From Taxillus chinensis (lineage: Eukaryota; Streptophyta; Magnoliopsida; Santalales; Loranthaceae), in contig CM042090.1 in the NCBI GenBank assembly GCA_023512835.1, forward strand, positions 47,943,321 through 48,007,320: a stretch of 64,000 bases of DNA, read 5' to 3'. Below, piece after piece: positions 1-59,890 of this stretch (the first letter of the stretch is position 1; each line of letters begins with the position of its first letter). The notes beneath the pieces are model-generated. The model was not told the DNA's origin. It saw only the letters and a program-made list of their open reading frames with translations, and did no database searches. A program made the translations under genes and the position numbers.

Positions 1-2093
1 TGCAAAGGGTTTATGTCAGAATTACCCCTGAAATTATTAGACATTGCTTTAACCTCCCTGAACCCAGTGATAGTTTCCCTCAGCTAAGCCTAGGAGAATT
101 TGGTACTGCATGCAACTATGCTAGAAAATTTCAAAGTCGAAGGCAGTTTACCAAGAATGGTTTTGGTGGAAAATTTAGATGCCTAGCTTACCTGGTAGGG
201 AAATGCTTATTGATTCAGACTAGTGGGCTAGATAGTGTGCCTAAGCCACACCTGGAGTTCATGTATAGCATTGATCATATGCTAAATGTGGATTGGGCCA
301 CTACCATTTTTAAATGGTGGAAGAAAAACTCATCAAAGCAAATAAATGGCAGACTTTTGTGTGTAATATTACAAAGCATGCCTGCTTTGCATTTTTCCTC
401 CATGGAGAGCACTACTTTTCCTTCTCACTGGGTGTTAAGAGTATTTCATGCTGAAGGAGGTTTGGGGGTCAGTACCAGAGGTCATTGGGCAACCAATGTT
501 CCTCCTCCATCACAGCCCACTAGGCACAGTGTTCATGTGGAGCGATCCACGAACTTTGCAAGGGAGACCTCTCCTCATGTGGATCAAAGGAAGCAGACTC
601 TATACAGACTCACTGCCATGTACATGCAGTTTAATGTACACAAAGAAGATATTTTCAATTTCTTTCAAGGCATTAGTGGGCAAGTAGTGAGCGAAGTGGA
701 GGTCATCAATTGGGCAGTCACTAATGGGCACATCACCAGTGCTCAATTTGAAGAATTAATGGCCCTCATCTTTGGAGACCAACAAGCTACTTCACAACCT
801 AGAACCAGAGCATGGGAGGCCCCAGATGTAGCTGCTCATGCATCGCCTAGAGCATGGGAAGCCCCAGAAGCTCCTCCTGCTGCATCTACCGAAGCTTGGA
901 GGCAAGAAACACAGCAGCTCAGGGAGGCAAATGCCAGAACCCAGCGCGAGGTGGAAGCCCTGAGGAAGGACAACAAAGAAGTTAAAGGCCTCCTAGGCAA
1001 AATCTGGAAGGCTTTGAGCAAGAGGAAAGCATCAAAACGTTCTCCTATAGTGGAGATATCTGATGAAGAACCCTCTCCATCCCCTGAAGATTCCTATCCA
1101 GCCCAGGCAGATCGACCTCAACCAAAATCTTCAGCTCGGCCATCCCACTATCACCCAGAGGAGGCAGAGCCAGCAGCAGGGTATTCACCCTTCCAGCCTC
1201 AAGAGGAGACAGAGCCAGCAGAAGGGTATTCACCTTTCCAGCCTTTTACTGATCCTGCATATTCTCAGGCTCTGGTGCCTGCTATACTTCCTATCTATTG
1301 GGGTGCATACATGCCTGCTGAACCTGAAGATCTTCTTGGCCCTCCTATCCATTTAATCATTAATCCAGCTTTATCATCTAACGAGAGCCAAGCAGCATTT
1401 GAAGAGTTCATCAATTCCACGGTTCAGACGGCTCGCTTTATACGGGATAATGATATCTTCACCCCTTTTAGCTTAAAGAGGATCTCCGAGAATGAATATC
1501 TCTACGCCGACGAGATAGACCTCTTTTGCAGGACCATGCGCTATGTAGTGGAGGCTGAGCCTCATAACTACCCCTTAGCTCGGTACACTTCCATCATGCT
1601 ATGTGAGCTTTTCAATCAACCCTTGTCCGAAGAGGTGTGGCGCCAACGCATCAATGGTGAGAATGAAGGGCACCGCCCTTGGCATGGTATGCATGAGGTG
1701 CTGATTCCGGTGCACATTGACCACCACTATGTACTTGTCCGTTTGAATCTGGATGTAGGACATGCCGTGCTTTATGATCCAAGCCAAGGCGAAGGGTTTG
1801 CTAGACAGAAAAGACAGTTAGTGCATGGGTTCATCAAACGAATGAAAGTGGCGATGATCAAAGAAGGCTTGTTGGCCGACAAGCTCCCTCTTATTCACTA
1901 CAACGAAATGCAAATTCCCCAACAGCCTGACCAATTCAGCTGTGGGATCTTTGCTTGCTACTACATGATGAGTATTCTGCAAGGGAAGGAAAATTGGGAA
2001 GTGAGCGGCGAGACGTCGGCTGACTTTGTGGCTCAGGTGCGACAGATGGTGGCCAATGTCATCTACTATTATAGTGTGCCAAACCAGGGGTAA
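1..2093 (+). CDS. ORF3: retrotransposon ULP1/C48-like cysteine protease (5' end outside window)
   Basis: The reading frame is open from base 3 to the stop at 2091-2093, about 696 residues, and lacks only the N-terminus seen in other copies (from MVRTRR). In order it has an N-terminal domain resembling plant transposon-associated proteins, an Ala/Pro linker with a repeated RAWEAP, a coiled coil (QQLREANARTQREVEALRK), a basic stretch KRKASKR that could be a nuclear signal, a Pro-rich repeat around GYSPFQP, and a C-terminal ULP1-like fold. The catalytic set is visible: His in HHYVLV (codon 1725-1727), Asp in LYDPSQ (1776-1778), Gln (1923-1925) six residues before Cys in QFSCGIF (1941-1943). Family members cleave SUMO or similar modifiers. 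The substrate here is unknown. It occupies the env-like position after pol. This is the best preserved ORF3 in the window. Confidence 0.85.
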   Translation, partial: QRVYVRITPEIIRHCFNLPEPSDSFPQLSLGEFGTACNYARKFQSRRQFTKNGFGGKFRCLAYLVGKCLLIQTSGLDSVPKPHLEFMYSIDHMLNVDWATTIFKWWKKNSSKQINGRLLCVILQSMPALHFSSMESTTFPSHWVLRVFHAEGGLGVSTRGHWATNVPPPSQPTRHSVHVERSTNFARETSPHVDQRKQTLYRLTAMYMQFNVHKEDIFNFFQGISGQVVSEVEVINWAVTNGHITSAQFEELMALIFGDQQATSQPRTRAWEAPDVAAHASPRAWEAPEAPPAASTEAWRQETQQLREANARTQREVEALRKDNKEVKGLLGKIWKALSKRKASKRSPIVEISDEEPSPSPEDSYPAQADRPQPKSSARPSHYHPEEAEPAAGYSPFQPQEETEPAEGYSPFQPFTDPAYSQALVPAILPIYWGAYMPAEPEDLLGPPIHLIINPALSSNESQAAFEEFINSTVQTARFIRDNDIFTPFSLKRISENEYLYADEIDLFCRTMRYVVEAEPHNYPLARYTSIMLCELFNQPLSEEVWRQRINGENEGHRPWHGMHEVLIPVHIDHHYVLVRLNLDVGHAVLYDPSQGEGFARQKRQLVHGFIKRMKVAMIKEGLLADKLPLIHYNEMQIPQQPDQFSCGIFACYYMMSILQGKENWEVSGETSADFVAQVRQMVANVIYYYSVPNQG

Positions 2094-10869: not shown

Positions 10870-11443
10870 ACAATTCACGTGCAAGACTTAAAGATGGTCC
10901 ATATTGGACAAGCAACAAAGTGGAGAAATTTGGGCCAGTTTGGGCCTGAACGTGAATTTACATGTGAATTGCCAAATTCACGTGCACCTCCTTTTGAGCT
11001 GAAACTTTTTGGAATGGTAGATGAAGACCATGTGAATCACGTTTACTCTTGCACGCGAATTGCTAGCTGTCATATGGAGGCTCAAAAATGCAAATTACAG
11101 ATTTTAGCCCTCCTAGAAGCTTCATACAATTCACGTGCAGAAGGGACTATTGCTTGCCAGCTCAAGGGGGACCCACCACCAAAGTTTTGAACGATTCTGA
11201 CCTGCACGCCAATTCAACCAATTCACGTGCAAGGGCTATTTTGGTCAGAACACTCTAAAAATTTAGGGGCATGTGTATCACGCCAATTGGAGCATCTTTC
11301 CTTCTGCACGCTATATAAGGAGAGGCCATCTTCAAAGGCTTCCACACCAAAATCACTCCAGATCTGAGTATTAGAGAAACTCTGCTCTTTTGCTCTCTTG
11401 CTCTTCAGTTTTCTGCTCTTTGCTCTTTATTCTCATTTCAAAG
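10870..11443 (+). promoter_or_regulatory. Probable internal promoter of ORF3 (A-3)
   Basis: Non-coding stretch before the ORF3 start with CACGTG at 10876, 10979, 11132 and 11224, several near matches (gaacgtgaat, gcacgcgaat, gcacgccaat), a TATA box TATATAAG at 11312-11319, and a pyrimidine-rich leader to the ATG at 11444. The last motif block (ctgcacgccaattcaacc...cacgtgcaagggctatttt) is plainly related to the G-box block of the family A LTR. Alternatively the pyrimidine-rich leader could hold a splice acceptor for a spliced RNA. Confidence 0.55.
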
Positions 11444-12775
11444 ATGGTGCGCACAAGGAGGACTGGCCAGGAGGAGGTGCACTCACCTAGTGCTGATAGC
11501 CAACCTGAGGAGGAGATACTCTTGGGGCATGCTCTTGATATGCGGGCTTTGGAGGCTTCAGAGCTGGGCTGGGCTAGAGAGGTAGCTCTCAAAATTCAAA
11601 ATCTGGGATTACAAAGGTTAGTATCTGCCCAGCCAGCTATTTCCTACTCTGCCCTACAAGAATTTTATGCATCTGTCTCTGTGAGTGAGGATGAACTAAT
11701 AGGGGTTGTGCAAAGGGTTTATGTCAGAATTACCCCTGAAATTATTAGACATTGCTTTAACCTCCCTGCTCCCAGTGATAGCCTTCCTCAGCTAAGCCTA
11801 GGAGAATTTGGTACTACATGCAACTATGCTAGAAAATTTCAAAGTCGAAGGCAGTATACCAAGAATGGTTTTGTTGGAAGATTTAGATGCCTAGCCTACC
11901 TGATAGGGAAATGCTTGTTGATTCAGACCAGTAGGATAGATAGTGTGCCTAAGCCACACCTGGAGTTGATGTATAGCATTGATCATATGCTAAATGTGGA
12001 TTGGGCCACTACCATTTTTAAATGGTGGAAGAAAAACTCATCAAAGCAGATAAATGGCAGATTTTTGTGTTTGATATTTCAAAGCATGCCTGCTTTGCAT
12101 TTTTCCTCCATGGATAGCATCACTTTTCCTTCTCACTGGGTGTTAAGAGTATTGCATGCTGAAGGAGGTTTGTGGATCAGTACCAGAGGTCATTGGGCAA
12201 CCAATGTTCCTCCTCCATCACAGCCCGCTAGGCACAGTGTTCATGTGGAGCGATCTACTGACTTTGCAAGGGAGGCCTCTCCTCATTTGGATCAAAGGAA
12301 GCAGACTCTATACAGACTCACTGCCATGTACATGCAATTCAATGTACACAAAGAAGATATTTTCAATTTCTTTCAAGGCATTCGTGGGCAGGTGGTGAGC
12401 GAAGTGGAGGTCATCAATTGGGCAGTCACTAATGGGCACATCACTAGTGCCCAATTTGAAGAATTAATGGCCCTCATCTCTGGAGACCAACAAGCTACTT
12501 CACAACCTAGAACCAGAGCATGGGAAGCCCCAGAAGCTCCTCCTGCTGCATCTACCGAAGCTTGGAGGCAAGAAACACAGCAGCTCAGGGAGGCAAATGC
12601 CAGAACCCAGCGCGAGGTGGAAGCTCTGAGGAAGGACAACAAAGAAGTCAAAGGCCTCCTAGGCAAGATCTGGAAGGCCTTGAGCAAGAGGAAAGCATCA
12701 AAATGTTCTCCTATAGTGGAGATATTGATAACGTGCATTTTATGCCGTTATTCTAGTGTTTATTTAGGATGTTAA
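11444..12775 (+). pseudogene. ORF3 of A-3, truncated by an LTR fragment
   Basis: Starts at ATG 11444 (MVRTRRTGQEEV), which all intact family A copies share. It keeps the whole N-terminal domain (ITPEIIRHCFNLP, GKCLLIQTS, LELMYSIDHMLNVDWA) and the coiled coil with KRKASK. Native sequence ends at 12725; the frame then reads 16 codons into an LTR fragment and stops at 12775. The ULP1 domain is absent. It lacks a 14-residue insert with the second RAWEAP that A-1 and A-4 have, so it descends from a slightly different subfamily member. Confidence 0.88.
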
Positions 12776-13155: not shown

Positions 13156-13357
13156 GGTCAGAACACTCTGAAAAGTTATGGGCACGTGTATCACGCCAAT
13201 TGGAGCATCTTTTCTTCTGCACGCTATATAAAGGGAGGCTATCTTCAAAGGCTTCCACACCAAAATCACTCCAGATCTGAGTATTAGAGAAAATCTGCCC
13301 TTCTGCTCTCTTGCTCTTGAGTTTTCTGCTCTTTGCTCTTATTTTCTCATTCCAAAG
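13156..13357 (+). promoter_or_regulatory. Core promoter and leader of ORF3 (A-4)
   Basis: Holds TATATAAAG at 13225-13233, about 125 bp before the ATG at 13358, and the pyrimidine-rich leader. The upstream G-box block of the native ORF3 region is missing but is replaced by the equivalent block of the LTR fragment just before it (CACGTG at 13027, 13109 and 13127). Confidence 0.5.
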
Positions 13358-15717
13358 ATGGTGCGCACAAGGAGGACTAGCCAAGAGGAGGTGCACTCAC
13401 CTAGTGCTGATAGCCAAACTGAGGAGGAGATACTCTTGGGGCATGCTCTTGATATGCAGGCTTTGGAGGCTTCAGAGCTGGGCTGGGCTAGAGAGGTGGC
13501 TCTTAAAATTCAAAATCTGGGATTACAAAGGTTAGTATCTGCCCAGCCAGCTATTTCCTATTCTGTCCTACAAGAATTCTATGCATCTGTCTCCGGGAGT
13601 GAGGATGAACTGATAGGGGTTGTGCAAGGGGTTTATGTCAGGATTACCCCTGAAATTATTAGACATTGCTTTAACCTCCCTGAACCCAGTGATAACTTCC
13701 CTCAGCTAAGCCTAGGAGAATTTGGTACTGCATGCAATTATGCTAGAAAATTTCAAAGTCGAAGGCAGTATACCAAGTATGGTTTTGTTGGAAAATTTAG
13801 ATGCCTAGCTTACGTGGTAGGGAAATGCTTATTGATTCAGACTAGTGGGCTAGACAGTGTGCCTAAGCCACACCTAGAGTTCATGTATAGCATTGATCAT
13901 ATGCTAAATGTGGATTGGGCCACTACCATTTTTAAATGGTGGAAGAAAAACTCATCCAAGCAGATAAATGGCAGACTTTTGTGTGTGATATTTCAAAGCA
14001 TACCTGCTTTGCATTTTTCCTCCATGGAGAGCATCACTTTTCCTTCTCACTGGGTGTTAAGAGTATTGCATGCTGAAGGAGGTTTGGGGGTCAGTACTAG
14101 AGGTCATTGGGCAACCAATGTTCCTCCTCCATCACAGCCCGCAAGGCACAGCGTTCATGTGGAGCGATCTACTGACTTTGCAAGGGAAACCTCTCCTCAT
14201 ATGGATCAAAGGAAGCAGACTCTATACAGACTCACTGCCATGTACATGCAGTTCAATGTACACAAAGAAGACATTTTCAATTTCTTTCAAGGCATTAGTG
14301 GGCAGGTGGTGAGCGAAGTGGAGGTCATCAATTGGGCAGTCACTAATGGGCACATCACTAGTGCCCAATTTGAAGAATTAATGGCTCTCATCTCTGGAGA
14401 CCAACAAGCTACTTCACAACCTAGAACCAGAGCATGGGAGGCCCCCAGGATGTAGCTGCTCATGCATCGCCTAGAGCATGGGAAGCCCCAGAAGCTCCTC
14501 CTACTGCATCTACCAAAGCTTGGAGGCAAGAAACACAGCTGCTCAGGGAGGCCAATGCCAGAACCCAGCGCGAGGTGGAAGCCCTGAGGAAGGACAATAA
14601 GGAAGTCAAAGGCCTCCTAGGCAAAATCTGGAAGGCTTTGAGCAAGAGGAAAGCATCAAAACGTTCTCCTATAGTGGAGATATCTGATGAAGAACCCTCT
14701 CCATCCCCTGAAGATTCCTATCCAGCCCAGGCAGATCCACCTCAACCAAAATCTTCAGCTCGGCCATCTTACTATCACCCGAGAGGAGGCGGCGCCAGAA
14801 CAGGGTATTCACCCTTCCAGCCTCAAGAGGAGACAGAGCCAGCAGAAGGGTATTCACCCTTCCAGCCTTTTACTGATCCTGCATATTCTCAGGCTCTGGT
14901 GCCTGCTATACTTCCTGTCTCTTGGGGTGCATACATGCCTGCTGAACCTGAAGATCTACTTGGCCCTCCTGTCCATTTAATCATTAATCCAGCCTTATCA
15001 TCTGACGAGAGCCAAGCAGCATTTGAAGAGTTCATCAATTCCACGGTTCAGAGGGCTCGCTTTATACGGGATAATGATATCTTCACCCCTTTTAGCTTAA
15101 AGAGGATCTCCGAGAATGAATATCTCTACGCCGACGAGATAGACCTCTTCTGCAGGACCATGCACTATGTAGTGGAGGCTGAGCCTCATAACTACCCCTT
15201 AGCTCAATACACTTCGATCATGCTGTGTGAGCTTTTTAATCAACCCTTGTCCGAAGAGGTGTGGCGCCAACGCATCAATGGTGAGAATAAAGGGCACCGC
15301 CCTTGGCATGGTATGCATGAGGTGCTGATTCCGGTGCACATTGACCGCCACTATGTACTTGTCCGTTTGAATCTGGATGTAGGACATGCCGTGCTATATG
15401 ATCCAAGCCAAGGCGAAGGGTTTGCTAGACGGAAAAGACAGTTAGTACATGGGTTCATCAAACGAATGAAAGTGGCGGTGATCAAAGAAGGATTGTTACA
15501 GGACAAGCTCCCTCTTATTCACCTCAACGAAATGGAAATCCCTCAGCAGCCTGACCAATTCAGCTGTGGGATCTTTGCTTGCTACTACATGATGGCTATT
15601 CTGCAAGGGAAGGAAACTTGGGAAGTGCGCGGCGAGACGTCGGCTGACTTTGTGGCTCAGGTGCGACGAATGGTGGCCAATGTCATCTACTATTACAGTG
15701 TGCCAAACCAGGGGTAA
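13358..15717 (+). pseudogene. ORF3 of A-4: full-length ULP1-like protease gene with one frameshift
   Basis: The most complete ORF3 of family A, about 785 codons from MVRTRRTSQEEV to the stop at 15715-15717. The N-terminal domain, coiled coil, basic KRKASKR and Pro-rich GYSPFQP repeats precede the ULP1-like domain, which has His in DRHYVLV, Asp in LYDPSQ, and Gln six residues before Cys in QFSCGIF. A two-base gain near 14443-14448 (gccccag read as gcccccagg) shifts the frame between residues about 362 and 365. The change sits on a CAG and may be a sequence error, since the protein reads normally on both sides. Substrate and role in the element cycle are unknown. Confidence 0.87.
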
Positions 15718-34070: not shown

Positions 34071-35118
34071 ATGCAGGGAACACCCACTGAAGAACCCTCA
34101 GCATCCACTGAAGTTTCTTATCCAGCCCAGGCGGATCCACCTCAACCAAAACCTTCAGCTCGGCCATCCCACTATCACCCCCAGGAGGCAGAGCCGGCAA
34201 CAGGGTATTCACCCTTCCAGCCTCAAGAGGAGACAAAGCTAGCAGAAGGGTATTCACCCTTCCCAGCCGTTTACTGATCCTGCATATTCTCAGGCTCTTG
34301 TGCCTGCTATACTTCCTATCTCTTGGGGTGCATACATGCCTGCTGAACCTGAAGATCTTCTTGGCCCTCCTATCCATTTAATCATTAATCCAGCTTTATC
34401 ATCTGACGAGAGCCAAGCAGCATTTGAAGAGTTCATCAATTCCACGGTTCAGAGGGCTCGCTTTATACGGGATAATGATATCTTCACCCCTTTTAGCCTA
34501 AAGAGGATCTCAGAGAATGAATATCTCTACTGCGACGAGATAGACCTCTTCTGCAGGACAATGCGCTATGTAGTGGAGGCTGAGCCTCATAACTACCCCT
34601 TAGCTCAGTTCACTTCCATCATGCTGTGCGAGCTATTCAATCAACCCTTGTCCGAAGAGGTGTGGCGCCAACGCATCAATGGTGAGAATGAAGGGCACCG
34701 CCCTTGGCATGGTATGCATGAGGTGCTGATTCCGGTGCACATTGACCGCCACTATGTATTGGTCCGTTTGAATCTGGATGTAGGACATGCCGTGCTATAT
34801 GACCCAAGCCAAGGTGAAGGGTTTGCCAGACGGAAAAGACAGTTAGTGCATGGGTTTATCAAATGAATCAAAGCGGCGATTATCAAAGAAGGCTTATTGG
34901 CAGACAAGCTACCTCTTATTCACTGCAACGAAATGGAAATTCCCCAACAACCTGACCAATTCAGCTGTGGGATCTTTGCTTGCTACTACATGATGGCTAT
35001 TCTGCAAGGGAAGGAAACTTGGGAAGTGCGCGGCGAGACATCGGTCGACTTTGTGGCTCAGGTGCGACGAATGGTGGCCAATGTCATCTACTATTACAGC
35101 TTGCCAACTGAGAGCTAA
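34071..35118 (+). pseudogene. ORF3 of A-5, N-terminal half deleted
   Basis: Retains the Pro-rich linker (YPAQADPPQPKPSARPSHY, GYSPFQP) and the ULP1-like domain but lacks the N-terminal domain and coiled coil. A frameshift near 34262 (ttcccagccg for ttccagcct) separates linker and protease. The protease part has His in DRHYVLV and Asp in LYDPSQ, then a TGA at 34864-34866 (Arg codon CGA in other copies), then the C-terminal part with QFSCGIFACYY. It ends LPTES at 35118, where other copies have PNQG. Confidence 0.87.
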
Positions 35119-43384: not shown

Positions 43385-44704
43385 TGTTAGGGGGGTTTTT
43401 TTCAAACACATTTTAGTGTCAAATGAAGGGGATTTATGATAAAAGATCACATCTTTAACTTCATTTTGATGAATTTGAATGATTAATGAACTAACCCCCT
43501 AACATAGCATTAGTAGATCCTTTTGTGGTGTTTTTGTTGTCTTTGAATGGAAAACAGGCCAAGTATAAAGTCCAAAGAAAGAATGAAGGAGCAAGGGACA
43601 ATCTGCACTGTGGTCATTTCAATTTTGAAATGACAAAAAAGAAATGACGGGACCAATTGAGTTGACCAGAAGCTCCCGAGAGCTTGATCATTTGAAACGG
43701 TCATTTGAAATTGAGTTGACCAAATGAATTGACCGAGGCGTTTTCGCACAACGTATTCTGGCGATCAACGAATCCTCATAGATGCCACGTGTACGACTGT
43801 AATCCTTCATTAAAGGATCTGACGATGCTCATTCAACCTTTTTGAGAGGGAAACGAGTTTGAATTAATGGAGGGAATAGTTCTAACAGTTAGGGGATGCG
43901 GTTATGCACAGAATTGTAAGACAAAAAGGGATTTTTCATGTAATTTGGGGGTTCGTTCATTCTGGGAGAGGGAGAGAAATGTATTGGGTTCTCATAGTAA
44001 GAACAATGGTTTTCTTATTTGCTATGGTAGCTTAAACCTCCATGGGAGGAGGATGGATTTGATGTAAGCTTTTAATTCCTTTTCTTTTGGTTAGTTAATT
44101 TGAAATTCCCTGTTATGTTTATCAAGTCTTTTGAGTTAGCATGTGAGATTTAAGTTCGGCCACCTTAAATCTTGTATAAGGTTAATCAATTATGGATCGA
44201 AAGAAGACATTGATAACCGGATAGTTAAGATACTTGACTTGCTAAGATTATAATATGCGAAAGCCAGTAATCTTGCTTGTAACCTAGTTAGGGTTGGTGT
44301 AATGCCAATCTACACTCAAACAACTTAAGCACATAATGGGTTGCCCGTTCCCCAAGCTAGGGTATACACACGGCTAGATCACTCGAAAGAGGCTAGTACA
44401 TGCAAAGGTGTTGGGTTTTAAACAAAAAGGGGAAGTTTGAATTAATATGCCTTAAGAACAAGAAATTAATTAACTACATTGATTGACATCCAAATCCCTA
44501 TTTTCTCCCATAAGAACATTTACATTGCTTTGTTTAATTAAATTACAACATTCAAATTGCTAATGATACAAAACCAACTTTAGATACATCATGGATTTAC
44601 AAAATGAGCTTTTTACTTGATCACTTTCCCTGTGGGTTCGACATCCGGACTTTGAGTCCACTTTATTACTTGTAACGATCCGTACGCTTGCGGAATTGTT
44701 AACA
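43385..44704 (+). repeat. 5' LTR of element B
   Basis: 1320 bp, TGTTAGGGGG to gttaaca. Between about 43600 and 43740 it has repeated GGTCATTT, GAAATGAC and GAGTTGACC motifs; TTGACC matches the W-box core. Compared with the 3' LTR it shows CAG/CTG anomalies near 43740-43795 (gtgtacgactg for gtgtacagcctg). Confidence 0.9.
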
Positions 44705-44710
44705 AGTTTT

Positions 44711-44728
44711 TGGCGCCGTTGCCGGGGA
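44711..44728 (+). promoter_or_regulatory. Primer binding site of element B (tRNA-Asp)
   Basis: TGGCGCCGTTGCCGGGGA is an exact complement of the plant tRNA-Asp(GTC) 3' end including CCA, six bases after the LTR. Confidence 0.92.
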
Positions 44729-46385: not shown

Positions 46386-49300
46386 AGGAATATGTGCAGG
46401 CTGTTATGTTAAGAAGTGGAAGAGAATTACCAGAGAGGGAAGTTCCTCAAGTGGAGGAAACAACCCATGTCAAAAAGGATGAAGGTGAACCTAAATCTGA
46501 GAAGGAAAGGGAAGAAAAGAAAGAGGAACATCCTGAAGTTCCTAAGGTGGTGAAGAATTATGCTCCACCAATACCCTTCCCTCAAAGATTGAGACAAAGA
46601 AAGAAAGATGAACAATACAGAAGATTCATTGAACATCTTAAGGAATTAAAGCTTACCATTCCATTTTTGGAAGCATTGGCTCAAATGCCTTCCTACTCCA
46701 AGATGTTGAAAGAGATGTTGAGTAACAAAAAGAAAATTGAAGAGAATGGAACAATTGCACTTACAGAGGAGTGTAGTGCAATTATTCAGAGAAAACTACC
46801 TCAGAAGATGGGAGATTCAGGAAGTTGAATATGAACAAGGTTGTCTTGTGGAGATGTTAAATACTGCAATTGAAGATCATGCTAAGGGATTTCATGATCC
46901 CTTAGAGTTATGTTTGGAGAATGTTTCATCAACTGTTAATGAAGACATTTTAGAGGTGAGAAATGCTTTAGAGGCCACACCAGTCATTCATTTTTAATCA
47001 AAGAAAGGATATGAAGATATTGGAAGAAATTCTAAACCAGTCCCATCGATTGAAAAGGCACTAAAGGTTGAGTTGAAGATTCTACCAGCACATCTAAAGT
47101 ATGTATTCTTGGGAGAAGAAGGTGAGTAGCCTGTTATTGTAGCAGCTGAGCTACAATGAGAACAATTAGATCGATTGTTGACATTTTTAAGGAAGAGGAA
47201 AAATGCCATTGGGTGGACAATGACAGATATAAAAGGAATTAGTCCTTCCATGTGTATGCACAGAATTTTCTTAGAGGACAAGAGTAAAAATAGCATTGAG
47301 CATCAGAGAAGGTTAAACCCAAACATGAAGGAAGTAGTAAGGGCTGAAGTTACTAAGCTTCTTGATGCTGGTATTATGTACTCTATAAATCTCTACTAGA
47401 ACTGTCACCGGATGGAGAGTTTGCATAGATTATCGCAAACTCAATGCAAACACAAGAAAAGATCATTTTCCTTTGCCACACATTGATCAAATGTTGGAAA
47501 GATTGGCCGGGCACAATTATTATTGTTTTCTTGATGGATATTCGGGTATAATCAAATACCCATTGCACCGGAAGATCAAGACAAAACTACTTTCACATGC
47601 CCTTATGGAACTTTTGCTTATAGGAGGATGCCTTTTGGATTATGCAATGCTCCTGCTACATTCCAACGTTGCATGATGGCTATCTTTTCAGAGTTTGTAG
47701 AGAAGACAATTGAAATCTTTATGGATGACTTCTCTATTTTTGGTTCTTCATATGATGATTGTTTAAATAATTTATCTCAAATTTTGCAGAGATGTGAAGA
47801 GACCAATCTTATTCTTAATTGGGAAAAATGTCATTTCATGGTACAAGAAGGCATTGTCTTGGGACATAAAGTGTCCAAGCAAGGGAATAGAGGTAGATCG
47901 TGCAAAGATTCGTCGCTATAAAATCCATGCCGCCACCCACAAATGTCAAAGGGGTTCGAAGTTTTTTGGGGCATGCAGGATTTTATAGAAGGTTCATAAA
48001 GGATTTTTCAAAAATTTCTAAACCTCTATGTTCATTGTTAGTGAAGGATGTGCCATTTGAATTTTCTGCTGAGTGTCAAACAGCTTTTAAGCAACTCAAG
48101 GAAGCTCTTATTTCTGCCCCTATCATTATATCTCCTGATTGGAATTTGCCATTTGAATTAATGTGTGACGCAAGTGACACAGCTATAGGAGTTGTCTTAG
48201 GGCAAAGAAAGGAGAAGAAGGTGCATGTAATTGCTTATGCAAGCAAATTGTTGAATGATGCTCAGATCAACTATGCCACAACTGAAAAGGAATTACTTGC
48301 AATTGTTTATGCCTTTGATAAATTCAGAAGTTACCTTTTGGGATCCCACACAGTTGTTTTCACAGATCATGCAGCTATTAAATACTTGATCACCAAAAAG
48401 GAATCAAAACCTCGTCGATTCGTTGGGTGTTATTGTTGCAAGAGTTTGATTTCACAATCAAGGATAAGCGGGGAGTAGAAAATGTTGTGGCAGATCATTT
48501 GTCACGATTAGAAGGAGTTGAAAAGAATTCGATGAAATTTTACCTATATTGAAGATTTTCCAGATGAAAAACTATTTGTTGTGCAGGAACTCACTCCTTG
48601 GTATGCAGATTTGGTAAACTATATTGTAGGGGGAATTTTCCCTTATAAATTCTCATCACAACAAAAAAAGAAATTTTTATCTGAAGTGAGGAGTTACATT
48701 TGGGAGAAACCTTTGTTATTCAAGATTTGTGCTAATGGTTTGATAAGAAGGTGTGTTCCAGAAGATGAGATGACCAATATTTTGAATCATTGTCACACTA
48801 GGGAGTGTGGAGGTCATATGGGACCATCTAAAACAGCAGCAAAGGTCCTTCAAGCAGGTTTCTTTTGGCCTACACTATTTCATGATACAAGGAGTTTTGT
48901 TCAAGCTTGTGAGCAATGCCAAAAGTCTGGAACTCTAACAAGAAGAGATGAAATGCCCCTGACAAACATTTTAGAAGTGGAGCTATTTGATGTTTGGGGA
49001 ATAGATTTTATGGGTCCTTTCCCGTTATCTTACAAGAATCAGTATATTCTAGTGGCAGTTGATTATGTGTCAAAGTGGGTGGAAGCCATAGCCACCCAAA
49101 CCAATGATTCAAGAGTGGTACTCAAGTTTCTTAAGAAGAATATTTTTACCAGATTTGGAGTACCCAGAGCATTAGTTAGTGATGGAGGAAGCCATTTTTG
49201 TAATAAGTTTATTGAAAAACTGTTGAAAAAGTATGGAGTTCATCATAGAATCACTACTCCATATCATCCTCAAGCCAATGGACAAGTTGAAATTTCAAAC

Positions 49301-49879
49301 AGAGAAATTAAGAGGATCCTTGAGAGAACAATCAACTTGTCTAGGAAGGAATGGGCTAACAAATTGGATGATGCATTGTGGGCATATAGAACAGCTTTCA
49401 AAACTCCATTGGGTACATCACCGTTCAAATTGGTTTTTGGAAAAGCATGCCACTTACCTGTGGAACTAGAGCATAAGGCCTATTGGGCCACACACTTTTT
49501 AAATTTTGATGCTCAGAAATCAGAGGAGTCCAGACTTATGCAATTAAATGAGATTGAGGAATTTAGATTGAATGCATATGAAAATGCAAAAATCTACAAG
49601 GAGAAGACTAAGAAATGGCATGATAAACATCTTCATCCTAAGCAGTTTATAGAAGGTCAGAAGGTTTTGTTGTATAATTCTAGACTGAAACTTTTTCCTG
49701 GAAAACTCAAGAGTAAATGGTCTGGACCTTTTGTGGTTAAAAAAGTTTTTGAAAAGGGAGGAGTACTTATTCAACAGGATAATTCTCCAGCATTCACTGT
49801 TAATGGACACAGGTTGAAGGTTTTTGTTGAGCCTGCAGGAGTAAAGGAGGTACTTTACCTTGCTCCATTTCCAAATTAA
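46386..49879 (+). pseudogene. pol: pol of element B, protease domain deleted
   Basis: Begins with the LRSGRELPEREVP linker and PIPFPQRLRQRKKDEQ...LPQKMGDSGS. It then jumps at about 46828 to acidic linker sequence (VNEDILEVRNALE), skipping the DLGA protease that family A has here. RT is partly deleted near 47385 (between AGIMYSI and TRTVTGWRVC) but retains [14 protein letters not shown] and FMDDFSIFGSS. RNase H has [16 protein letters not shown]. The integrase, 48581-49879, is open and complete: [16 protein letters not shown], Asp in GIDFMGPF, Asp in [10 protein letters not shown], Glu in [11 protein letters not shown]. Without a protease it would need one supplied in trans. Confidence 0.88.
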
Positions 49880-49921
49880 TCAAGGAAGAATGTCAAGCTA
49901 CTGACATTAAATGCAGCGCTT

Positions 49922-49937: not shown

Positions 49938-50354
49938 GTTATTTGTGATTATTTGATTGTTTGTTTGAGTTTATTGATATTCAGATAGAGAATCCAAGCA
50001 TCGTTGCAGTTGAAGGAGGTTAATTCTGCATTTTGGACTGAAACTGGTAATTTTTAGTGAAATGGTCATTTGAAATTTAAAATGACCAAATTGAAATGAC
50101 ACAGTCATTTGAAATGACTAAGGTGTCCCGAAGGCTTAGTCAATTAAAAATTGAGTTGACAAATCGATTGACTAAGGACACTCATTTAAAAACAGAGGGT
50201 CAATATTTAAGCCGAACTTCCTTTGCACGAAATCTACCAGCTCACTCCTCCAGTTCGCGAATCTCGCTCAGCTCCCTTATCTCTTAAAGGTTTGTTGATT
50301 CAGACTACCTCCAACCAAGTTGAACACTCGCTCGTTTTCTTCGTGACGGTTCAC
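49938..50354 (+). promoter_or_regulatory. ORF3 upstream region of element B with LTR-like motifs
   Basis: Contains GGTCATTTGAAATT, AAATGACCAAATTGAAATGAC, GTCATTTGAAATGAC, GAGTTGACA and GATTGACT between about 50060 and 50180. These are the motif types of B's own LTR. A TATA-like tatttaag lies near 50205, about 150 bp before the ORF3 ATG at 50355. Promoter function is inferred. Confidence 0.45.
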
Positions 50355-52435
50355 ATGGTGAAATCAAAGGCAGTTGTCAGAGAGGTGACGCCAGGACTGG
50401 TGTTTCCATGGGAACTCTTGAATAACCCTAGAATCTCATGGGCAGCCGAAATGCAGAAAAAACTTGAAGGACAGAACTTGCACAAGGTATGTGGCAATCC
50501 TTGCCCTCTGTTGATGGAGTTTGCAGAAAATTTTTATAATAATTTGAAAACAGAGGAGAATCGTATGATCTCTATAGTAGGGGGAAAGAAGGTAGTAATT
50601 TCTGCTGCCAATATTCGAAAAACCTTCAATTTGCAGAGCAAATGCTGCTCTCTACCTGACCTAACTAAAGAGGAATTTAGTAAAGCACTTGACTACTCCA
50701 AACCAAAGGGGAATGAGAAGAAATATCATAAGAAAACGGGGTTTTCAGGGTATTTAAGGTTTTTGGCTATTCTCTTTGGTCGGTGCATATTTTCTCAGAT
50801 GCTAGGAATTGATGCAGTCCCTGTTGCACATTTACAATGCATGTATAGCATCAAGGCAGAATTATCCATAGACTGGGCAGAAATGATATTTCAAGAGTGG
50901 AAGAAATCAGTGGATAAGAGGGGATTTGTGCGAATTTTAACAAAAGTGGTGCAACACTGTTATCCTAGTATATATAGAACTGCTGCTAAGACCCCTTACC
51001 CAAACAATTTGATTATAAAATGTATCACTGAGGAAGGGACTATAGCCGTTAAATTGGTGGGGCCTGTGTTTCATAGAGCAAAGCAAATATCTCCTGTAAA
51101 AGATGGTTCAGCTCTCCCACTTCAGATTTCTTCAACTCAGGAAGAGAATACTGAAAAGGAAAATATGCAGAAACCTGAGAAATATGAATCTTCTGAGGAA
51201 GATGAAGAAACTGATGTACGAAGTTCAAGTGAGGAATCAGCCTTACTTAAGCTTCAAGGAGATGTAAAGGCTGCTTATGAGAGCCACATGAAACAAATTG
51301 CAGAATTATTGGGAAAAGTGCAACAAAGGAAGAAGAAATCAACAAAAGCCCAACCTGAATCGAGAGAAGGAGCAAAAGAAATGCGAGGAAGAAGTAGCTT
51401 CCACTCATGTGGCTACACCCGAACCAACAGTGGAAATCGAAGAAGATGAGGTAGAGAGAGATCCTTCTCCTCTAACAATACAACTTTTTCCACCATTTGA
51501 GATAGAGAGCAGTTTGCATCCTGCAGGTGCTGTTCAGAAATGCCCAAAGAAAACTAGAGCCCTAACAAGAAGAGCTCCAACAAGAGCTCAAAAGAAAAAA
51601 AGAACTGAGCTATCATTGGATTTGCTTACAACTCCTCTATGGTCATTGTTGGACATACTTATCCCTCTAGGGCTGGAAACAATTGAATCAAGAGAGAGAT
51701 ATTTCCAGTTTAGAGATTCTAATCAAGAACTTTATAGAACAACTGGGCATTTAGAACATTTTCGGCCAGAGGACTTGAGGAGAATTGTTGGTGTTCGAAA
51801 TTGGATTGAGTCACCTGATTTGGGCAATTTCATTTTTGCCTTAAGAGATGCTATCAGGAAGGAACCAGAGATTTTTAAACATGGTAAGGACTATGAAGTA
51901 TTTCCCTTGCTTGCAAATTCTTCTCCCCTTAAGCCAGAGGCGTTGGCTGCATATATGATAGGGAGTGAAGAAGGTTTCCGACCATGGGTAGATTTAAAAG
52001 CTGTTCTGATCCCCATTCACATCTCAAATCATTACATCCTACTGAAGTATACAATGGGGAATCGTGTTATTCATGTATATGATTCCTTGGGAGCAAATAA
52101 TGCAGACAGATTAAAAGAGTTAGCAGCTGGGGTTGGAGAATCTTTGCATCAGGCTATGAAGATAGCTCAAATATATACTCATTTTGGCATGGAGGAACCA
52201 GGAGGAACAATTGTCCTATTCAGTCCAACCATCACCTCGCCAAGTTGACAATTCAAGCTGTGGGCCTTTTGTTTGTTATTATTTGACAGCTCTCATGCAA
52301 GAACATGGAGGAAAATGGGATGCACCAAATTCAAACCCGATTTCTGTACTAGCCCTTCGTGAATTGATGGCTCAAATGATGTATTATTTTAGTGAGCCAG
52401 CCTCTCCTCGTAAGAAAAAGAAGAAGAAGGTTTGA
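50355..52435 (+). pseudogene. ORF3 of element B: diverged ULP1/C48-like protease gene
   Basis: Start MVKSKAVVREV at 50355 corresponds to MVRTRR of family A. The N-terminal domain aligns by eye (LLMEFAENFYNNL, AANIRKTFNL, GRCIFSQMLGIDAVPVAHLQCMYSI, IDWAEMIFQEWKKS). An acidic Ser/Glu linker and a Lys-rich coiled segment follow. The ULP1-like domain has His in SNHYILLK, Asp in VYDSLGANN, and Gln six residues before Cys in DNSSCGPFVCYYL. It ends in a Lys run (KKKKKKV). Two frame changes, near 51300-51440 and 52200, split the gene into three overlapping frames. Sequence between families is well diverged, yet the catalytic residues are kept. Confidence 0.85.
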
Positions 52436-53699
52436 ACAATTCCCTTTTCTGGTCGTATGTTTTGTTTTTGTGAATATGCAAAACTCCAAGTTTGGAGTTG
52501 TTTGTGAAGATGCAATGGAATTAATGATGATATGCATTGTTCATATATGAGATTTGGTTATATTGTGAAAGGAGTTGCATGATCAAAAGATGAATTCATG
52601 AGGAAAATTTTTGAAATGTTTATATATAACATGTTTAAGAATGAAATACTTTTGAAACCAATGGTCACTCATTAATCCCATGCATGAAACTCATGTACTT
52701 GGAATGATATCATCATGTGTTTGAACAAAGACTTGGATCCATAATGAATTGATAACTTTTGAATAAATAACTTGATTCCTTGAATGAGTGAGAACATAAC
52801 TTTATTGAGAGCTATATATTTTGATGAGTGTTCACTTCATGGAAATTAAACTTCAATAAGTCCTTCTATAGTTCTACATTGGTGATTGGATAGTTGGAAT
52901 GGTGGAGTTGGAGTCATAGCCCACTTTGTTTAGAATAAGTACAATGTTCCAAGTTGTAAAGTGTTGTATAAAGTGTGTATACTTAAAAAAAAAGGTTATG
53001 AACTGTGGAGATATATAATCCATCAAAGAACACTTTGTAAGGTTATATAGACTACCGTAGCATAAGCCTTGAAAAAAAAAAAGAAAAAAGAAAAAAAGAA
53101 AAGGTTATGGATTGTGGAGATATATAATCCATCAAGGAAACACTTGTAAGGTTATATAGACTATTGCAGCATAATCCTTTAAAAAAAAAAGTATTACAGT
53201 TGTATATTTTCAAAGTGCATTGTACATAGAACTTACTTGTACATTAAAATTAGATCAGAAGTGTGTTGGGCATTGTTACTTTTACCATTATTGTGGTCTA
53301 TGACAAAAAAAAAACTAATTGGGTAATGGAATGATGGTTGAATCACCAAAAAGGATTAGGAAGGCACTTGTTTTAGTTTTAATTCCATGAAAGATTGAGA
53401 GAGAGTGAAGTGACACTACTCTATTAGTGAGGTTGCTTTGCTCATTGTGAGATTACAAGGAATTAGGAAATTTGTTTCAGAATGTTGGTGGTTCAATTGC
53501 TTCCTAGTCTTCTGTAAAGAGAACATATGATTGTTGGACTGAGAATACAAAACTTCATACATGATATTAAGAGTTAAACCATATGTTTTATGGATGTTTT
53601 ATTCTTTCACATGCTCTTATATCAATTCATTGTCTTACTTTTGCTATGCCTCATAATTCTAATTGCCTCGGGACGAGCAAGTTCTAAGTTTGGAGTTGT
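52436..53699 (+). other. 3' untranslated region of element B, with ~100-bp tandem duplication
   Basis: AAGTTTGGAGTTGTT occurs just after ORF3 (52488-52502) and again touching the 3' LTR (53686-53700). A unit of about 100 bp (tgtggagatatataatccatcaa ... aaggttatatagact ... A-rich) is present twice, at about 52993-53095 and 53101-53185. Its core resembles the family A 3' region (aatccatcaaggg ... cttgtaaggttat ... A-rich). A bulged hairpin TTGCCTCGGGACGAGCAA is at 53663-53680. Confidence 0.7.
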
Positions 53700-55020
53700 T
53701 GTTAGGGGGTTTTTTTCGAACACATTTTAGTGTCAAATGAAGGGGATTTATGATAAAAGATCACATCTTTAACTTCATTTTGATGAATTTGAATGATTAA
53801 TGAACTAACCCCCTAACATAGCATTAGTAGATCCTTTTGTGGTATTTTTGTCGTCTTTGAATGGAAAACAGGCCAAGTACAAAGTCCAAAGAAAGAATGA
53901 AGGAGCAAGGGACAATCTGCACTGCGGTCATTTCAATTTTGAAATGACCAAAAAGAAATGACGGGACCAATTGAGTTAACCAAAAGCTCCCGAGAGCTTG
54001 ATCATTTGAAACGGTCATTTGAAATTGAGTTGACCAAATGAATTGACCGCGGGCAGTTTCTGCACAACGTATTCTGCTGATCAACGAATCCTCATAGATG
54101 CCACGTGTACAGCCTGTAATCCTTCATTAAAGGATCTGACGATGCTCATTCAACCTTTTTGAGAGGGAAACGAGTTTGAATTAATGGAGGGAATAGTTTT
54201 AACAGTTAGAGGATGCGGTTATGCACAGAATTGTAAGACAAAAAGGGATTTTTCATGTAATTTGGGGGTTCGTTCATTCTGGGAGAGGGAGAGAAATGTA
54301 TTGGGTTCTCATAGTAAGAACAATGGTTTTCTTATTTGCTATGGTAGCTTAAACCTCCATGGGAGGAGGATGGATTTGATGTAAGTTTTTAATTCCTTTT
54401 CTTTTGGTTAGTTAATTTGAAATTCCCTGTTATGTTTATCAAGTCTTTTGAGTTAGCATGTGAGATTTAAGTTCGGCCACCTTAAATCTTGTATAAGGTT
54501 AATCAATTATGGATCGAAAGAAGACATTGATAACCGGATAGTTAAGAGACTTGACTTGCTAAGATTATAATTTGCGAAAGCCAGTAATCTTGCTTGTAAC
54601 CTAGTTAGGGTTGGTGTAATGCCAATCTACACTCAAACAACTTAAGCACATAATGGGTTGCCCGTTCCCCAAGCTAGGGAATACACACGGCTAGATCACT
54701 CGAAATAGGCTAGTACATGCAAAGGTGTTGGGTTTAAACAAAAAGGGGAAGTTTGAATTAATATGCCTTAAGAACAAGAAATTAATTAACTACATTGATT
54801 GACATCCAAATCCCTATTTTCTCCCATAAGAACATTTACATTGCTTTGTTTAATTAAATTACAACATTCAAATTGCTAATGATACAAAACCAACTTTAGA
54901 TACATCATGGATTTACAAAATGAGCTTTTTTACTTGATCACTTTCCCTCGTGGGTTCGACATCCGGACTTTGAGTCCACTTTATTACTTGTAACGATCCA
55001 TGCGGCTTGAATTGTTACGA
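53700..55020 (+). repeat. 3' LTR of element B
   Basis: Starts TGTTAGGGGG. Nearly identical to the 5' LTR until the last ~80 bases, which look corrupted (gatccatgcggcttgaattgttacga for gatccgtacgcttgcggaattgttaaca). The GGGTA duplication follows at 55021. Confidence 0.88.
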
Positions 55021-56959: not shown

Positions 56960-57539
56960 TGGACTCAACCAATTCACGTGCAAGACTTAAAGATGGTCCA
57001 TAATGCATAAGCAACTCGTGGAGAAATTTGGGCCGGTTTGGGCACTAACGTGAATTTGCACGTGAATTGCCCAAATAACGTGCACCTCCTTTTGAGTCGT
57101 AACTTTCCGGAATGGTAGATGAAGACCATGTGAATCACGTTTACTCTTGCACACGAATTGCTAGCTGTCATATGGAGGCCCAAAATTCAAAATACCGATT
57201 TTAGCCCTCCTAGAAGCTTCACACAATTCACGTACAGAAGGGACTATTGCTTGCCGGCTCATGGGGGACTCACCACCAAAGTTTGGGACGATTTCGACCG
57301 CACGCCGGTTCGTCCAATTCACGTTCAAGGGCTATTTTGGTCGAACACTCTGAAAATTTAGGGGCACGTGTATCACGCCAATTAGAGCATCCTTCCTTCT
57401 CGCATGCTATATAAAGGAGGCCATCTTCAAAGGTTTCCACACCAAAATCACTCCAGATCTGAGTATTAGAGAAACTCTTGCTCTTTTGCTCTCTTGCTCT
57501 TCGGTTTTTGCTCTTTGCTCTTATTTTCTTATTCCAAAG
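56960..57539 (+). promoter_or_regulatory. Probable internal promoter of ORF3 (A-6)
   Basis: Same layout as in A-3, with CACGTG sites at about 56975, 57060 and 57365, diverged or misread ones (aacgtgcacc, cacgtacag, cacgttcaag), a TATA box tatataaa at 57408-57415, and the pyrimidine-rich leader to ATG 57540. Confidence 0.5.
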
Positions 57540-59890
57540 ATGGTGCGCACAAGGAGGACCGGCCAGGAGGAGGTGCACTCACCTAGTGCTGATAGCTCAA
57601 CCCGAAGAGGAGATACTCTTGGGGCATGCTCTTGATATGCGGACTTTGGAGGCTTCGAGCCGGGGCTGGGCAAGAGAGGTGGCTCTTAAAATTCAAAATA
57701 CGGGATTACAAAGGTTAGTATCCGCCTAGCGACTATTTCCTACTACGCCTTACAAGAATTTTATGCATCTGTGTATGTAAGTGAGGATGAACTGATAGGG
57801 GTTGTGCAAGGGTTTATGTTAGAATTACCCCTGAAATTATTAGACATTGCTTTAACCTCCCTGCACCCAGGTGATAGCCTTCCTCGGTTAGGCCTAGGGG
57901 AATTTGATACTGCATGCAACTATGGTGAAAATTTCAAAGTAGAAAGCGGTATACCAAGAATGGTTTTGTTGGAAGTTTTAGATGCCTAGCTTACATGGTA
58001 GGGAAATGCTTATTGATTCGGACAGTGGGCTAGATAGTGTGCCTAAGCCACACCGGAGTTCATGTATAGCATTGATCATATGCTAAATGTGGATTGGGCC
58101 ACTACCATTTTTAAATGGTGGAAGAAAAACTCATCAGCAAGATAAATGGCGAGTTTTTTTTGTTTGATATTTCAAAGCATGCTCGCTTTGCATTTTTCCT
58201 CCATGGATACCATCACTTTTCCTTCTCACTGGGTGTTAAGAGTATTGCATGCTAAAGGAGGTTTGGGAATCAATACCGAGAGGTCATTGGGCAACCAATG
58301 TTCCTCCTCCGTCCTGACCCGCTAGGCACGGTGTTCATGTGGAGCGATCCACCGACTTTGCAAGGGAGACATCTCCTCATATGGATCAAAGGAAGACAGA
58401 CTTTTATACGGACTCACTACCATGTACATGCAGTTCAATGTACACAAAGAAGATATTTTCAATTTCTTTCAAGGCATTAGTGGGCGGTGGTGAGCGAAGT
58501 GGAGGTCATCTATCAGGCGATCACTAATGGGCACATCACTAGTGCCCAATTTGAGGAATTAATGGCCCTCATCTCGGGAGACCAACAAGCTACTTCATAA
58601 CCTAGAACCAGAGCATGGGAGGCCCAGACATAGCTGCTCATGCATCTCCTAGAGCATGGGAAGCCCTCGAAGCTCCTCCACTGCCCTCTACCGAAGCTTG
58701 GAGGCAAGAAACACACGGCTCAGGGAGGCAAATGCCAGAACCCAGTGCGAGATGGAAGCTCTAAGGAAGGACAACAAAGAAGTCAAAGGCCTCCTAGGCA
58801 AGATCCGGAAGGCCTTGAGCAAGAGGAAAGCATCAAAACGTTCTCCCCATGGTGGAGATATCGATGAAGAACCCTCTCCATCCCCCCGGTTTCTTATCCC
58901 GCCCAGGCGGATCCACCTCAACCGAACCTTGACTCGGCCATCCCACTATCACCCCGGAGGAGGCAGAGCTAGCAAAAGGGTATTCACCCTTCCCGACCTC
59001 AGAGGAGACAAAGCTAACGAAGGGTATTCACCCTTCCGACCGTTTCTCGATCTCGCATATTCTCAGGCTCTTGTGCCTGCTATACTTCCTATCTCTTGGG
59101 GTGCATACCTTCTGCTGAACTCGAAGATCTTCTTGGCCCTCCTATCCATTTAATCATTAATCGACTTTATCATCCGACGAGAGCCAAACAGCATTTGAAG
59201 AGTTCATCAATTCCACGGTTCGGAGGGCTCGCTTTATACGGGATAATGATATCTTCACCCCTTTTAGCCTAAAGAGGATCTCGGAGAATGAATATCTATC
59301 TTTGCGACGAGATAGACCTCTTTCTTGAGACAATGCGCTATGTAGTGGAGGGTGAGCCTCATAACTACCCCTTAGCTCGGTTCACTTCCATCATGCTGTG
59401 CGAGCTATTCAATTAACCCTTGTCCGAAGAGGTGGGCGCCAACGCATCAATGGTGAGAATGAAGGGCACCGCCCTTGGCATGGTATGCATGAGGTGCCGA
59501 TTCCGGTGCATATTGACCGCCACTATGTATTGGTCCGTTTGAATACGGATGTAGGACATGTCGTGCTATATGACCCAAGCCAAGGCGAAGGGTTTGCAGG
59601 ATGGAAAGACGAGTTAGTGCATGGGTTCATCAAACGAATCAAAGCGGCGATGATCAAAAGAAGGCTTGTTGGCGAGACAAGCTACCTCTTATTTCTCGCA
59701 ACGAAATGGAAATTCCCCAACAACCTGACCAATTCGACTATGGGATCTTTGCTTGCTACTACATGATGGCTATTCTGCAAGGGAAGGAAACTTGGGAAGT
59801 GCGGCAAGAACGTCGGTTGACTTTGTGGCTCAGGTGCGACGAATGGTGGCCAATGTCATCTCCTATTAAAACTTGCCAACCGAGAGGTAA
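57540..59890 (+). pseudogene. ORF3 of A-6 (ULP1-like), heavily frame-broken
   Basis: Full-length layout from MVRTRRTGQEEV to the stop near 59888-59890, colinear with A-4, but in many short frames. The coiled-coil/basic region (KRKASKRSP) and the protease part (HRPWHGMHE, IDRHYVLVRLN, LYDPSQGEGF, IFACYYMMAIL) are readable. The catalytic Cys region reads QFDYGIF for QFSCGIF (ttcgactatggg for ttcagctgtggg), again a CAG/CTG site, so the loss of Cys may not be real. Confidence 0.82.

What the first reader, a model, noticed from the sequence alone, without database searches (positions are those of the whole stretch)
50355..52435. ULP1/C48-like protease ORF kept downstream of pol in two diverged Athila-type families
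Families A and B both have, after integrase, a third gene with the same N-terminal domain, coiled/charged linker and C-terminal ULP1-like domain. Gag, pol and ORF3 of the two families are well diverged, yet His (HYVLV/HYILL), Asp (LYDPSQ/VYDSLG), Gln at -6 and Cys (FSCGIF/SSCGPF) are all kept. ULP1-type domains are well known in plant DNA transposons (for example Mutator-like elements). A long-standing place in the env position of Athila-type retrotransposons suggests a working function, perhaps removing SUMO from host silencing factors or from Gag/integrase. I am not sure whether this has been described.
Basis: partly seen in the sequence, partly recalled or inferred. Interest (0 to 1): 0.88.

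Follow-up and report, generated by a model that had tools for sequence, protein, structure and literature searches.

The report
SUMO-protease-like gene in plant retrotransposons
Several retrotransposon families in one plant genome, from two only distantly related groups, carry the same extra gene in the place where retroviruses keep their envelope gene, and it encodes a conserved relative of the proteases that strip SUMO from proteins.

Summary
The gene at 50355-52435 is the third gene of an LTR element (43385-55020). It has an N-terminal domain distantly like Pfam Transposase_32 ("T32-like"), a charged linker, and a C-terminal Ulp1/SENP-type (C48) protease domain. This copy is broken by two frameshifts; relatives have it as one open frame. 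Family A scores 37 bits against Pfam C48 (cut-off 20.7), and a profile of A plus B finds human SENP1 (E 1.5e-5). His, Asp, Gln(-6) and Cys are kept in A, B and a third gypsy family. dN/dS of the domain is 0.13-0.34 between window copies and 0.15-0.17 between A and A' subfamilies, much as in reverse transcriptase. No membrane segment was found. In the same genome the T32-like+ULP gene also lies downstream of Ty1/copia pol, ahead of an LTR-like repeat. Gypsy and copia versions group apart, so the sharing looks old. At least one gypsy copy has a swapped ULP domain. Most likely it is a nuclear SUMO/Ubl protease that shields the element from silencing or matures its proteins; activity is untested. 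Ten searches of an open-access library showed no description in LTR retrotransposons.

The parts
43385..44704 (+). 5' LTR of the B element (TGTTAG...TTAACA); 5-bp target duplication GGGTA at 43380-43384
44711..44728 (+). primer binding site, 18 of 18 to the tRNA-Asp site (pattern recalled)
   Evidence: tRNA-Asp primer of Diaspora and the Calypso group from passages of PMC1142308
45116..46243 (+). B gag (Retrotrans_gag)
47535..48478 (+). B RT and RNase H pieces (two frames)
48536..49879 (+). B integrase (Integrase_H2C2, rve)
50355..51095 (+). B third gene, N-terminal T32-like domain (frame +3, begins with ATG)
51096..51597 (+). B third gene, charged linker; frame break (+3 to +1) where the open frames overlap, 51292-51449
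51598..52233 (+). B third gene, ULP/C48 domain with catalytic His (HYILL) and Asp (VYDS), frame +1
52235..52435 (+). B third gene, Gln/Cys box (QVDNSSCGPF) and basic tail, frame +2
53700..55020 (+). 3' LTR of the B element; GGGTA at 55021-55025
3..2093 (+). family A third gene, one open frame with T32-like, linker and ULP (cut by the window's start)
11375..12775 (+). family A third gene, N part (T32-like, linker)
13232..15717 (+). family A third gene, T32-like (13361-14122) and ULP (14899-15714), one frame break near 14446
34089..35118 (+). family A third gene, linker and ULP only, one stop in ULP
57414..59887 (+). family A third gene, decayed copy; Cys box reads DYG instead of SCG

Best explanation
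The third gene of these gypsy (Athila-type) elements encodes a C48/Ulp1-type cysteine protease tethered to an N-terminal T32-like domain. SHOWN: homology to C48, the kept catalytic quartet, its place between integrase and 3' LTR, selection on the protein, no hydrophobic segment of membrane type, homologous genes in copia elements, and one copy with an exchanged ULP domain. INFERRED: the protein works in the nucleus (basic clusters in linker or tail of most versions); the T32-like domain aims it at a partner; and the protease removes SUMO or a similar tag, most likely from host chromatin-silencing factors bound to the element, less likely from its own Gag/integrase. This would be an LTR-element parallel to the Ulp1-carrying anti-silencing VANC (KIU) genes of VANDAL transposons.
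For: Pfam C48 above cut-off in A (37.5), P0001 (24.7), L037 (37.2), L038 (52.9), L039 (30.1). PDB profile matches with E under 0.003 are SENP1, SENP5 and SENP2. Quartet kept. dN/dS of ULP between A copies 0.16-0.34, with at most 1 of 300 neutral placements as low in each of four comparisons; RT 0.22 and 0.26. Between A and A' subfamilies 0.15-0.17 at dS 0.8-1.3; copia 0.09-0.28. Single open frames holding both domains in A, A', B' and a third family D. No 19-residue window above 1.6 hydropathy in 7 of 7 protein pieces (highest 1.56, B N part). Basic clusters: KRKA/KKKA in A and A', KKKRT in B's linker, RKRA/KKRA in four of five copia frames, KKKKKK in B's tail. Precedent: Vandal elements with Ulp1-carrying VANC genes induce hypomethylation of related copies (passages of the review PMC13317346).
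Against: No activity, localisation or target data. Gypsy versions lack the Trp that follows His in SENPs. Predicted structures are of low confidence (pLDDT 56 and 49), with no Foldseek match below E 0.001. Not every copy keeps the active site: L039 has Ser for Cys, the decayed window copy Tyr for Cys, copia L012 Tyr for His. No basic cluster was found in D (L038) by my patterns. The SUMO-interaction-like IVEISDEE motif of A is no more frequent than in shuffles (149 of 500) and is absent from B, D and L027. The review itself calls the precise function of Ulp1 in these MULEs unknown.
Confidence: 0.5

Rival explanations
1. A processing protease of the element: the C48 domain cleaves the element's own polyprotein or third-gene product, as some viral proteases of the same clan do for their virions (recalled).
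For: Ulp1-like domains are also fused to NeSL and Utopia non-LTR retrotransposon proteins (passages of PMC4640811), where a polyprotein role is conceivable. The low-confidence structure searches also list poxvirus core proteases.
Against: A's gag-pol shows a weak match to an aspartic protease domain (PF13650, 20.4 bits, under its cut-off of 24.3), the expected processing enzyme, and the third gene is a separate frame. Sequence matches in the PDB with E under 0.003 are SENPs.
Confidence: 0.2
2. An envelope-like protein for cell-to-cell passage, as often written of third genes of Athila-type elements.
For: Position after pol; the literature calls such genes env-like (passages).
Against: No window above 1.6 hydropathy in 7 of 7 protein pieces; an enzyme domain under selection; basic nuclear-type clusters in most versions.
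Confidence: 0.04
3. A pseudo-enzyme: the domain only binds a SUMO-like protein and serves as an adaptor.
For: Trp after His absent from gypsy versions; one open B' copy has Ser for Cys.
Against: His, Asp, Gln and Cys kept together in window A, L026, L027, D and P0001, and in 6 of 7 copia domains printed.
Confidence: 0.2
4. A passenger: a captured host or MULE fragment without function.
For: Gene capture by plant elements is common (review PMC13317346, passages); many copies are broken.
Against: dN/dS far under 1 against matched neutral placements, over several subfamilies and in copia too; the same two-domain order in gypsy and copia lineages.
Confidence: 0.02

Closest known systems
Third gene (aORF+) of sunflower Athila 14, PMC11728184 (passages read)
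   Same: Athila element, gene 3' of pol, partial similarity to Transposase_32 (PF20167), predicted nuclear
   Different: No Ulp1/C48 domain is named in the text ('ulp' and 'peptidase' 0 occurrences)
KIU / VANC genes with Ulp1 domain in VANDAL-type MULEs (Kaonashi), PMC13317346 (passages read)
   Same: Ulp1 domain in a transposon's accessory gene, conserved, linked to escape from silencing
   Different: Non-TIR MULE DNA transposons; no sequence of theirs was available here, so relation to the T32-like or ULP domains is untested
Ginger1 and Mutator transposons with Ulp1 domain, PMC2836005 (passages read)
   Same: Ulp1 domain in a mobile element; Ginger1 integrase groups closely with that of Athila/Tat
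   Different: In Ginger1 it is the C-terminal part of the transposase; cut-and-paste DNA transposons; Ginger1 from animals
NeSL / Utopia non-LTR retrotransposons with N-terminal Ulp1-like protease, PMC4640811 (passages read)
   Same: Ulp1-like domain in a retrotransposon
   Different: Non-LTR, nematodes, at the N terminus of the RT protein
Human SENP1 and SENP5 (PDB 2iyc, 9gnn)
   Same: Sequence match over the His-Asp-Gln-Cys core
   Different: Trp after His in place of Tyr/Phe; low identity; yeast Ulp1 (1euv) itself only at E 0.44
Calypso, Cyclops and Diaspora, PMC1142308 (passages read)
   Same: Athila-related group, tRNA-Asp primer site (Diaspora, Calypso), third gene in other members
   Different: Third gene described as env-like, with little similarity between families; Diaspora lacks it

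Membership tests
Peptidase C48 (Ulp1/SENP) | Profile score above Pfam's cut-off | tested here: met
   A 37.5, P0001 24.7, L037 37.2, L038 52.9, L039 30.1 against 20.7; window B piece alone 16.4, not met
Peptidase C48 (Ulp1/SENP) | Catalytic His-Asp-Cys and Gln at -6 of Cys | tested here: met
   A, B, P0001, L038 and 6 of 7 copia domains printed; exceptions L039 Ser for Cys, decayed window copy Tyr for Cys, copia L012 Tyr for His
Peptidase C48 (Ulp1/SENP) | Trp directly after catalytic His, as in the aligned SENPs | tested here: not met
   Tyr or Phe in the gypsy versions; Trp in copia and the L009/L010 group. Its tie to SUMO-tail binding is recalled only, so I use it as a caution, not as a bar to C48
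Peptidase C48 (Ulp1/SENP) | Fold | tested here: inconclusive
Peptidase C48 (Ulp1/SENP) | Cleaves SUMO or another Ubl | not testable with these tools
   needs protein
Pfam Transposase_32 (PF20167) | Score above the curated cut-off of 45 bits | tested here: not met
   22.9-25.9 bits in three window proteins, at most 33 in relatives, not reported for the truncated 3-2090 copy nor for copia L022; hence T32-like, not a member
Athila lineage of Ty3/gypsy | Gypsy order gag-PR-RT-RH-IN and tRNA-Asp primer site | tested here: met
   (protease part only a weak Pfam match)
Athila lineage of Ty3/gypsy | RT groups with reference Athila elements | not tested
   no reference elements held
Retroviral-type env | Membrane segment | tested here: not met
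   no 19-residue window above 1.6 in 7 of 7 protein pieces, highest 1.56
Sirevirus (for the copia carriers) | copia pol followed by an extra gene before the 3' LTR | tested here: met
   L019/L029 with LTR-like repeat; L022, L023 with pol upstream, repeats not sought
Sirevirus (for the copia carriers) | RT groups with reference Sireviruses | not tested
   no references held; I do not file them as Sireviruses
KIU/VANC of MULEs | Resides in a MULE with transposase | tested here: not met
   the window genes and L019, L026, L027, L038, L039 lie beside LTR-element pol

The most novel reading that the evidence does not exclude
T32-like+ULP is a travelling two-domain weapon shared by both LTR superfamilies of plants: a nuclear Ubl protease in the env position that frees the element from SUMO-dependent silencing. 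Its aiming (T32-like) and cutting (ULP) domains are re-dealt between elements by template switching, which keeps a diversity of specificities. Many 'env-like' genes of plant LTR retrotransposons would then not be envelopes at all.
Probability: 0.3. Interest if true: 0.88.

Novelty: new variant of a known kind. Interest (0 to 1): 0.74.

Why it matters
What the third gene of Athila-type and similar plant LTR elements does has long been open, and 'env-like' has been the usual word. A conserved protease that can be expressed and assayed makes the question directly testable. The same gene in copia and gypsy elements, and a swapped domain, would point to a shared accessory toolkit comparable to viral accessory genes, and to SUMO pathways as a battlefield between plants and their retrotransposons.

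Tried and rejected
Protein database searches with the A C-terminal part and the whole A third gene found nothing; the A+B alignment found one protein, P0001. Viral contigs: three scans, no relative. Structure models were of low confidence; their matches are told as inconclusive only. Phmmer of P0001 alone found no SENP. The integrase tree had no starred branch and is used only for distances. The copia element's target duplication, primer site and outer LTR end were sought and not found. SUMO-interaction-like motifs are not clearly above chance: in 16 sequences shuffled 500 times, the lowest count of shuffles reaching the observed number was 19, in one sequence and for other motifs. In one search, three of six pol/gag comparisons were out of register (identity 23-34%); I dropped them and repeated the work by tblastn, where matches under 60 columns and minus-strand frames were left out. 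dS near 3 is saturated and not used. The automatic motif table picked wrong boxes in some rows; active-site residues were read from the alignments and printed sequences instead.

The reading that A and B captured the domain separately and recently was rejected: both domains, in the same order, are shared and the trees show no recent capture.

Literature: ten searches of the held open-access library listed no paper that I could see to describe a Ulp1/C48 domain in the third gene of an LTR retrotransposon; I looked at listings and at passages of thirteen papers, not at whole texts. Subscription papers, Wright and Voytas 2002 among them, and automatic labels in sequence databases were not seen.

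Full report
WHAT IS THERE. The B element runs from 43385 to 55020. Its LTRs (1320 and 1321 bases) differ at 32 of 1316 aligned sites (K2P 0.025), flanked by the direct repeat GGGTA, and a perfect tRNA-Asp primer site follows the 5' LTR at 44711. At recalled plant rates (1.3e-8 or 7e-9) it inserted about 1-2 million years ago. It lies inside a family A element, whose pol resumes after it. Inside B come gag, RT/RNase H, integrase, then the reported gene at 50355-52435, then 1.3 kb and the 3' LTR. The gene is in three frames, so this copy is dead.

SELECTION. Codon comparisons of A copies in the window give dN/dS for the ULP domain of 0.16, 0.26 and 0.34 (the last counted from both sides). In 300 neutral placements that kept the kind of change and CpG context, means were 0.72-0.96, and 0, 0, 0 and 1 were as low. 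RT gave 0.22 and 0.26 (9 and 3 of 300), integrase 0.30 and 0.31 (7 and 14), the T32-like domain 0.25-0.56 (1 to 74 of 300; the weakest is not significant). Gag gave 0.29 and 0.45, the protease part 0.75, and RNase H from 0.31 to 1.11, highest against the decayed copy. The decayed third gene at 57414-59887 gave 0.38-0.79. Earlier counts gave 0.13-0.34 for ULP. Against A' subfamilies from elsewhere in the genome the ULP domain gives 0.15-0.17 (bootstrap limits 0.09-0.25) at dS 0.8-1.3; one closer pair within A' (L026-L037) gives 0.52; four copia pairs at dS 0.2-0.8 give 0.09-0.28. So the domain has been kept by selection for a long time.

THE HOST GENOME. The window belongs to a 520.9-Mb, 264-contig assembly. 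A search with the A domain returned 142 scored copies out of 7695 candidates, and with P0001 115 rows; both are lower bounds. Of 4308 C48 candidates only 150 were scored. I fetched 20 of these 150 places, chosen by me to spread over the list with a lean to long open frames, so not a random sample. In 18 of 20 a T32-like domain lies upstream of the ULP domain on the same strand (not in L011 and L028). In 12 of 20 copia RT or integrase of at least 70% identity to that of L019 (L019 included) lies further upstream on that strand; three of the twelve are scraps of 34-66 residues (L015, L020, L010). In 2 of 20 (L026, L027) gypsy pol of the A type does. In 6 of 20 no such pol was found in range; one of these, L012, has a chromodomain integrase. 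Pfam names the copia parts as gag_pre-integrs, rve, SH3_retrovirus and RVT_2. For L019 the 5' flank (L029) holds a direct repeat of the region downstream of the ULP gene, 93.8-97.0% identical over about 1.4 kb, and a purine-rich tract abuts the downstream copy. I did not find a target duplication, a primer site or the outer LTR ends. L022 and L023 align over 9.9 kb at 85-92%, so the gene is a regular part of that copia family. In L022 both domains are in one 1059-residue frame by my own profiles; Pfam reports only C48 there.

Eight further loci were picked from the Transposase_32 search (147 matches). Six of them, L030-L035, are among the ten highest-scoring and show neither this T32-like domain nor this ULP domain by tblastn at E 1e-4, apart from a 42-residue ULP scrap in L032. 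So the domain here is a distant relative of Pfam's family, not a member.

A THIRD GYPSY FAMILY AND THE TREES. L038 (family D) and L039 (B') carry gypsy pol and one open frame with both domains; L037, of type A', has the same frame. In the ULP tree copia is one clade (100/100). The ten gypsy rows lie together with weak support (70/76 against copia and L009/L010; 43/0 if the distant outgroup is counted). In the T32-like tree one branch (96/94) parts gypsy from copia plus the L009/L010/L036 group. Within gypsy both trees give ((B,B'),D) against A. Integrase distances agree (B-B' 0.04, B-D 0.38, A-B 0.64), although that tree has no well-supported branch. Sharing between the superfamilies therefore looks old, either by transfer of the fused gene or by two early gains from one source; I cannot tell which.

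EXCHANGE OF DOMAINS. Between window A (13232-15717) and L027 the linker region differs little at synonymous sites (24 of 163) but the ULP domain much (80 of 176; Fisher p 6e-10), and L027's ULP is nearer to that of L026 and L037 (0.32 and 0.28 differences per synonymous site, against 0.45-0.47 to window A). So L027 looks like a mosaic joined between linker and ULP. Its T32-like domain does not differ clearly from the linker (p 0.07), and the pair L026-L037 shows no such contrast (p 0.33). Between B and B' integrase differs at 100 of 268 synonymous sites, ULP at 95 of 129 and T32-like at 109 of 155 (p 8e-12 and 7e-11). Hence the third gene there seems older than the pol it travels with. These tests treat sites as independent and the loci were few.

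FUNCTION. No membrane-type segment was found (highest window 1.56, threshold 1.6). Basic clusters lie in the linker or tail of A, A', B and most copia proteins, but my patterns found none in D. A's linker has IVEISDEE and A' VVEISEED, which look like SUMO-interaction motifs by recalled consensus, but such motifs are not clearly above chance by shuffling, and B, D and L027 lack this one. The best reading is a nuclear Ubl protease with an aiming domain. The closest functional precedent is the Ulp1-carrying VANC gene of VANDAL elements, described in the review PMC13317346 (passages read), where the precise role of Ulp1 is called unknown. The sunflower Athila study PMC11728184 reports Transposase_32 similarity and nuclear prediction, with no occurrence of 'ulp' (passages read); the reviews PMC7264820 and PMC12786077 and the Retand study PMC11963269 have none either (passages read).

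VERDICT. Real, selected, wider than described, with function still inferred. Ulp1 domains in transposons and extra genes in LTR elements are both known. Their union in the env position of gypsy and copia elements, with signs of domain exchange, is what I could not find in print in the ten searches named under Tried and rejected.

Noticed in passing
L019, L021-L025, L016-L018: Ty1/copia elements of the same genome carry the T32-like+ULP gene downstream of pol, with Trp after the catalytic His
   Followed up: partly
L027:6653-7876: Mosaic third gene: linker of the window A type, ULP domain nearer to the L026/L037 type
   Followed up: partly
L039 against window 47535-52432: pol is 88-90% identical to B at the DNA level while the third gene is 65-75% identical, as if the third gene had been exchanged
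   Followed up: partly
L009:539-1462: Open frame with geminivirus Rep catalytic and central domains (87 and 76 bits) upstream of a T32-like+ULP gene, perhaps an integrated viral sequence
   Followed up: no
L012:8789-9499: Chromodomain integrase upstream of a copia-type T32-like+ULP gene (itself with Tyr for the catalytic His); nested insertion or another carrier
   Followed up: no
window 57414-59887: Decayed family A third gene with Tyr at the catalytic Cys
   Followed up: yes
window 4979-6619, minus strand, and 20070-24610: Further gypsy-type pol and gag pieces (RVT_1, RNase H; Retrotrans_gag, RVP_2, integrase zinc finger)
   Followed up: no
L019:6731-7879 and L014, linker before ULP: Basic cluster followed by an acidic run (RKRAHRTTVISDSDDDDDVPI; KKRAYKAPIPSESDNDDVPI), in a place like A's KRKASKRSPIVEISDEE
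   Followed up: partly
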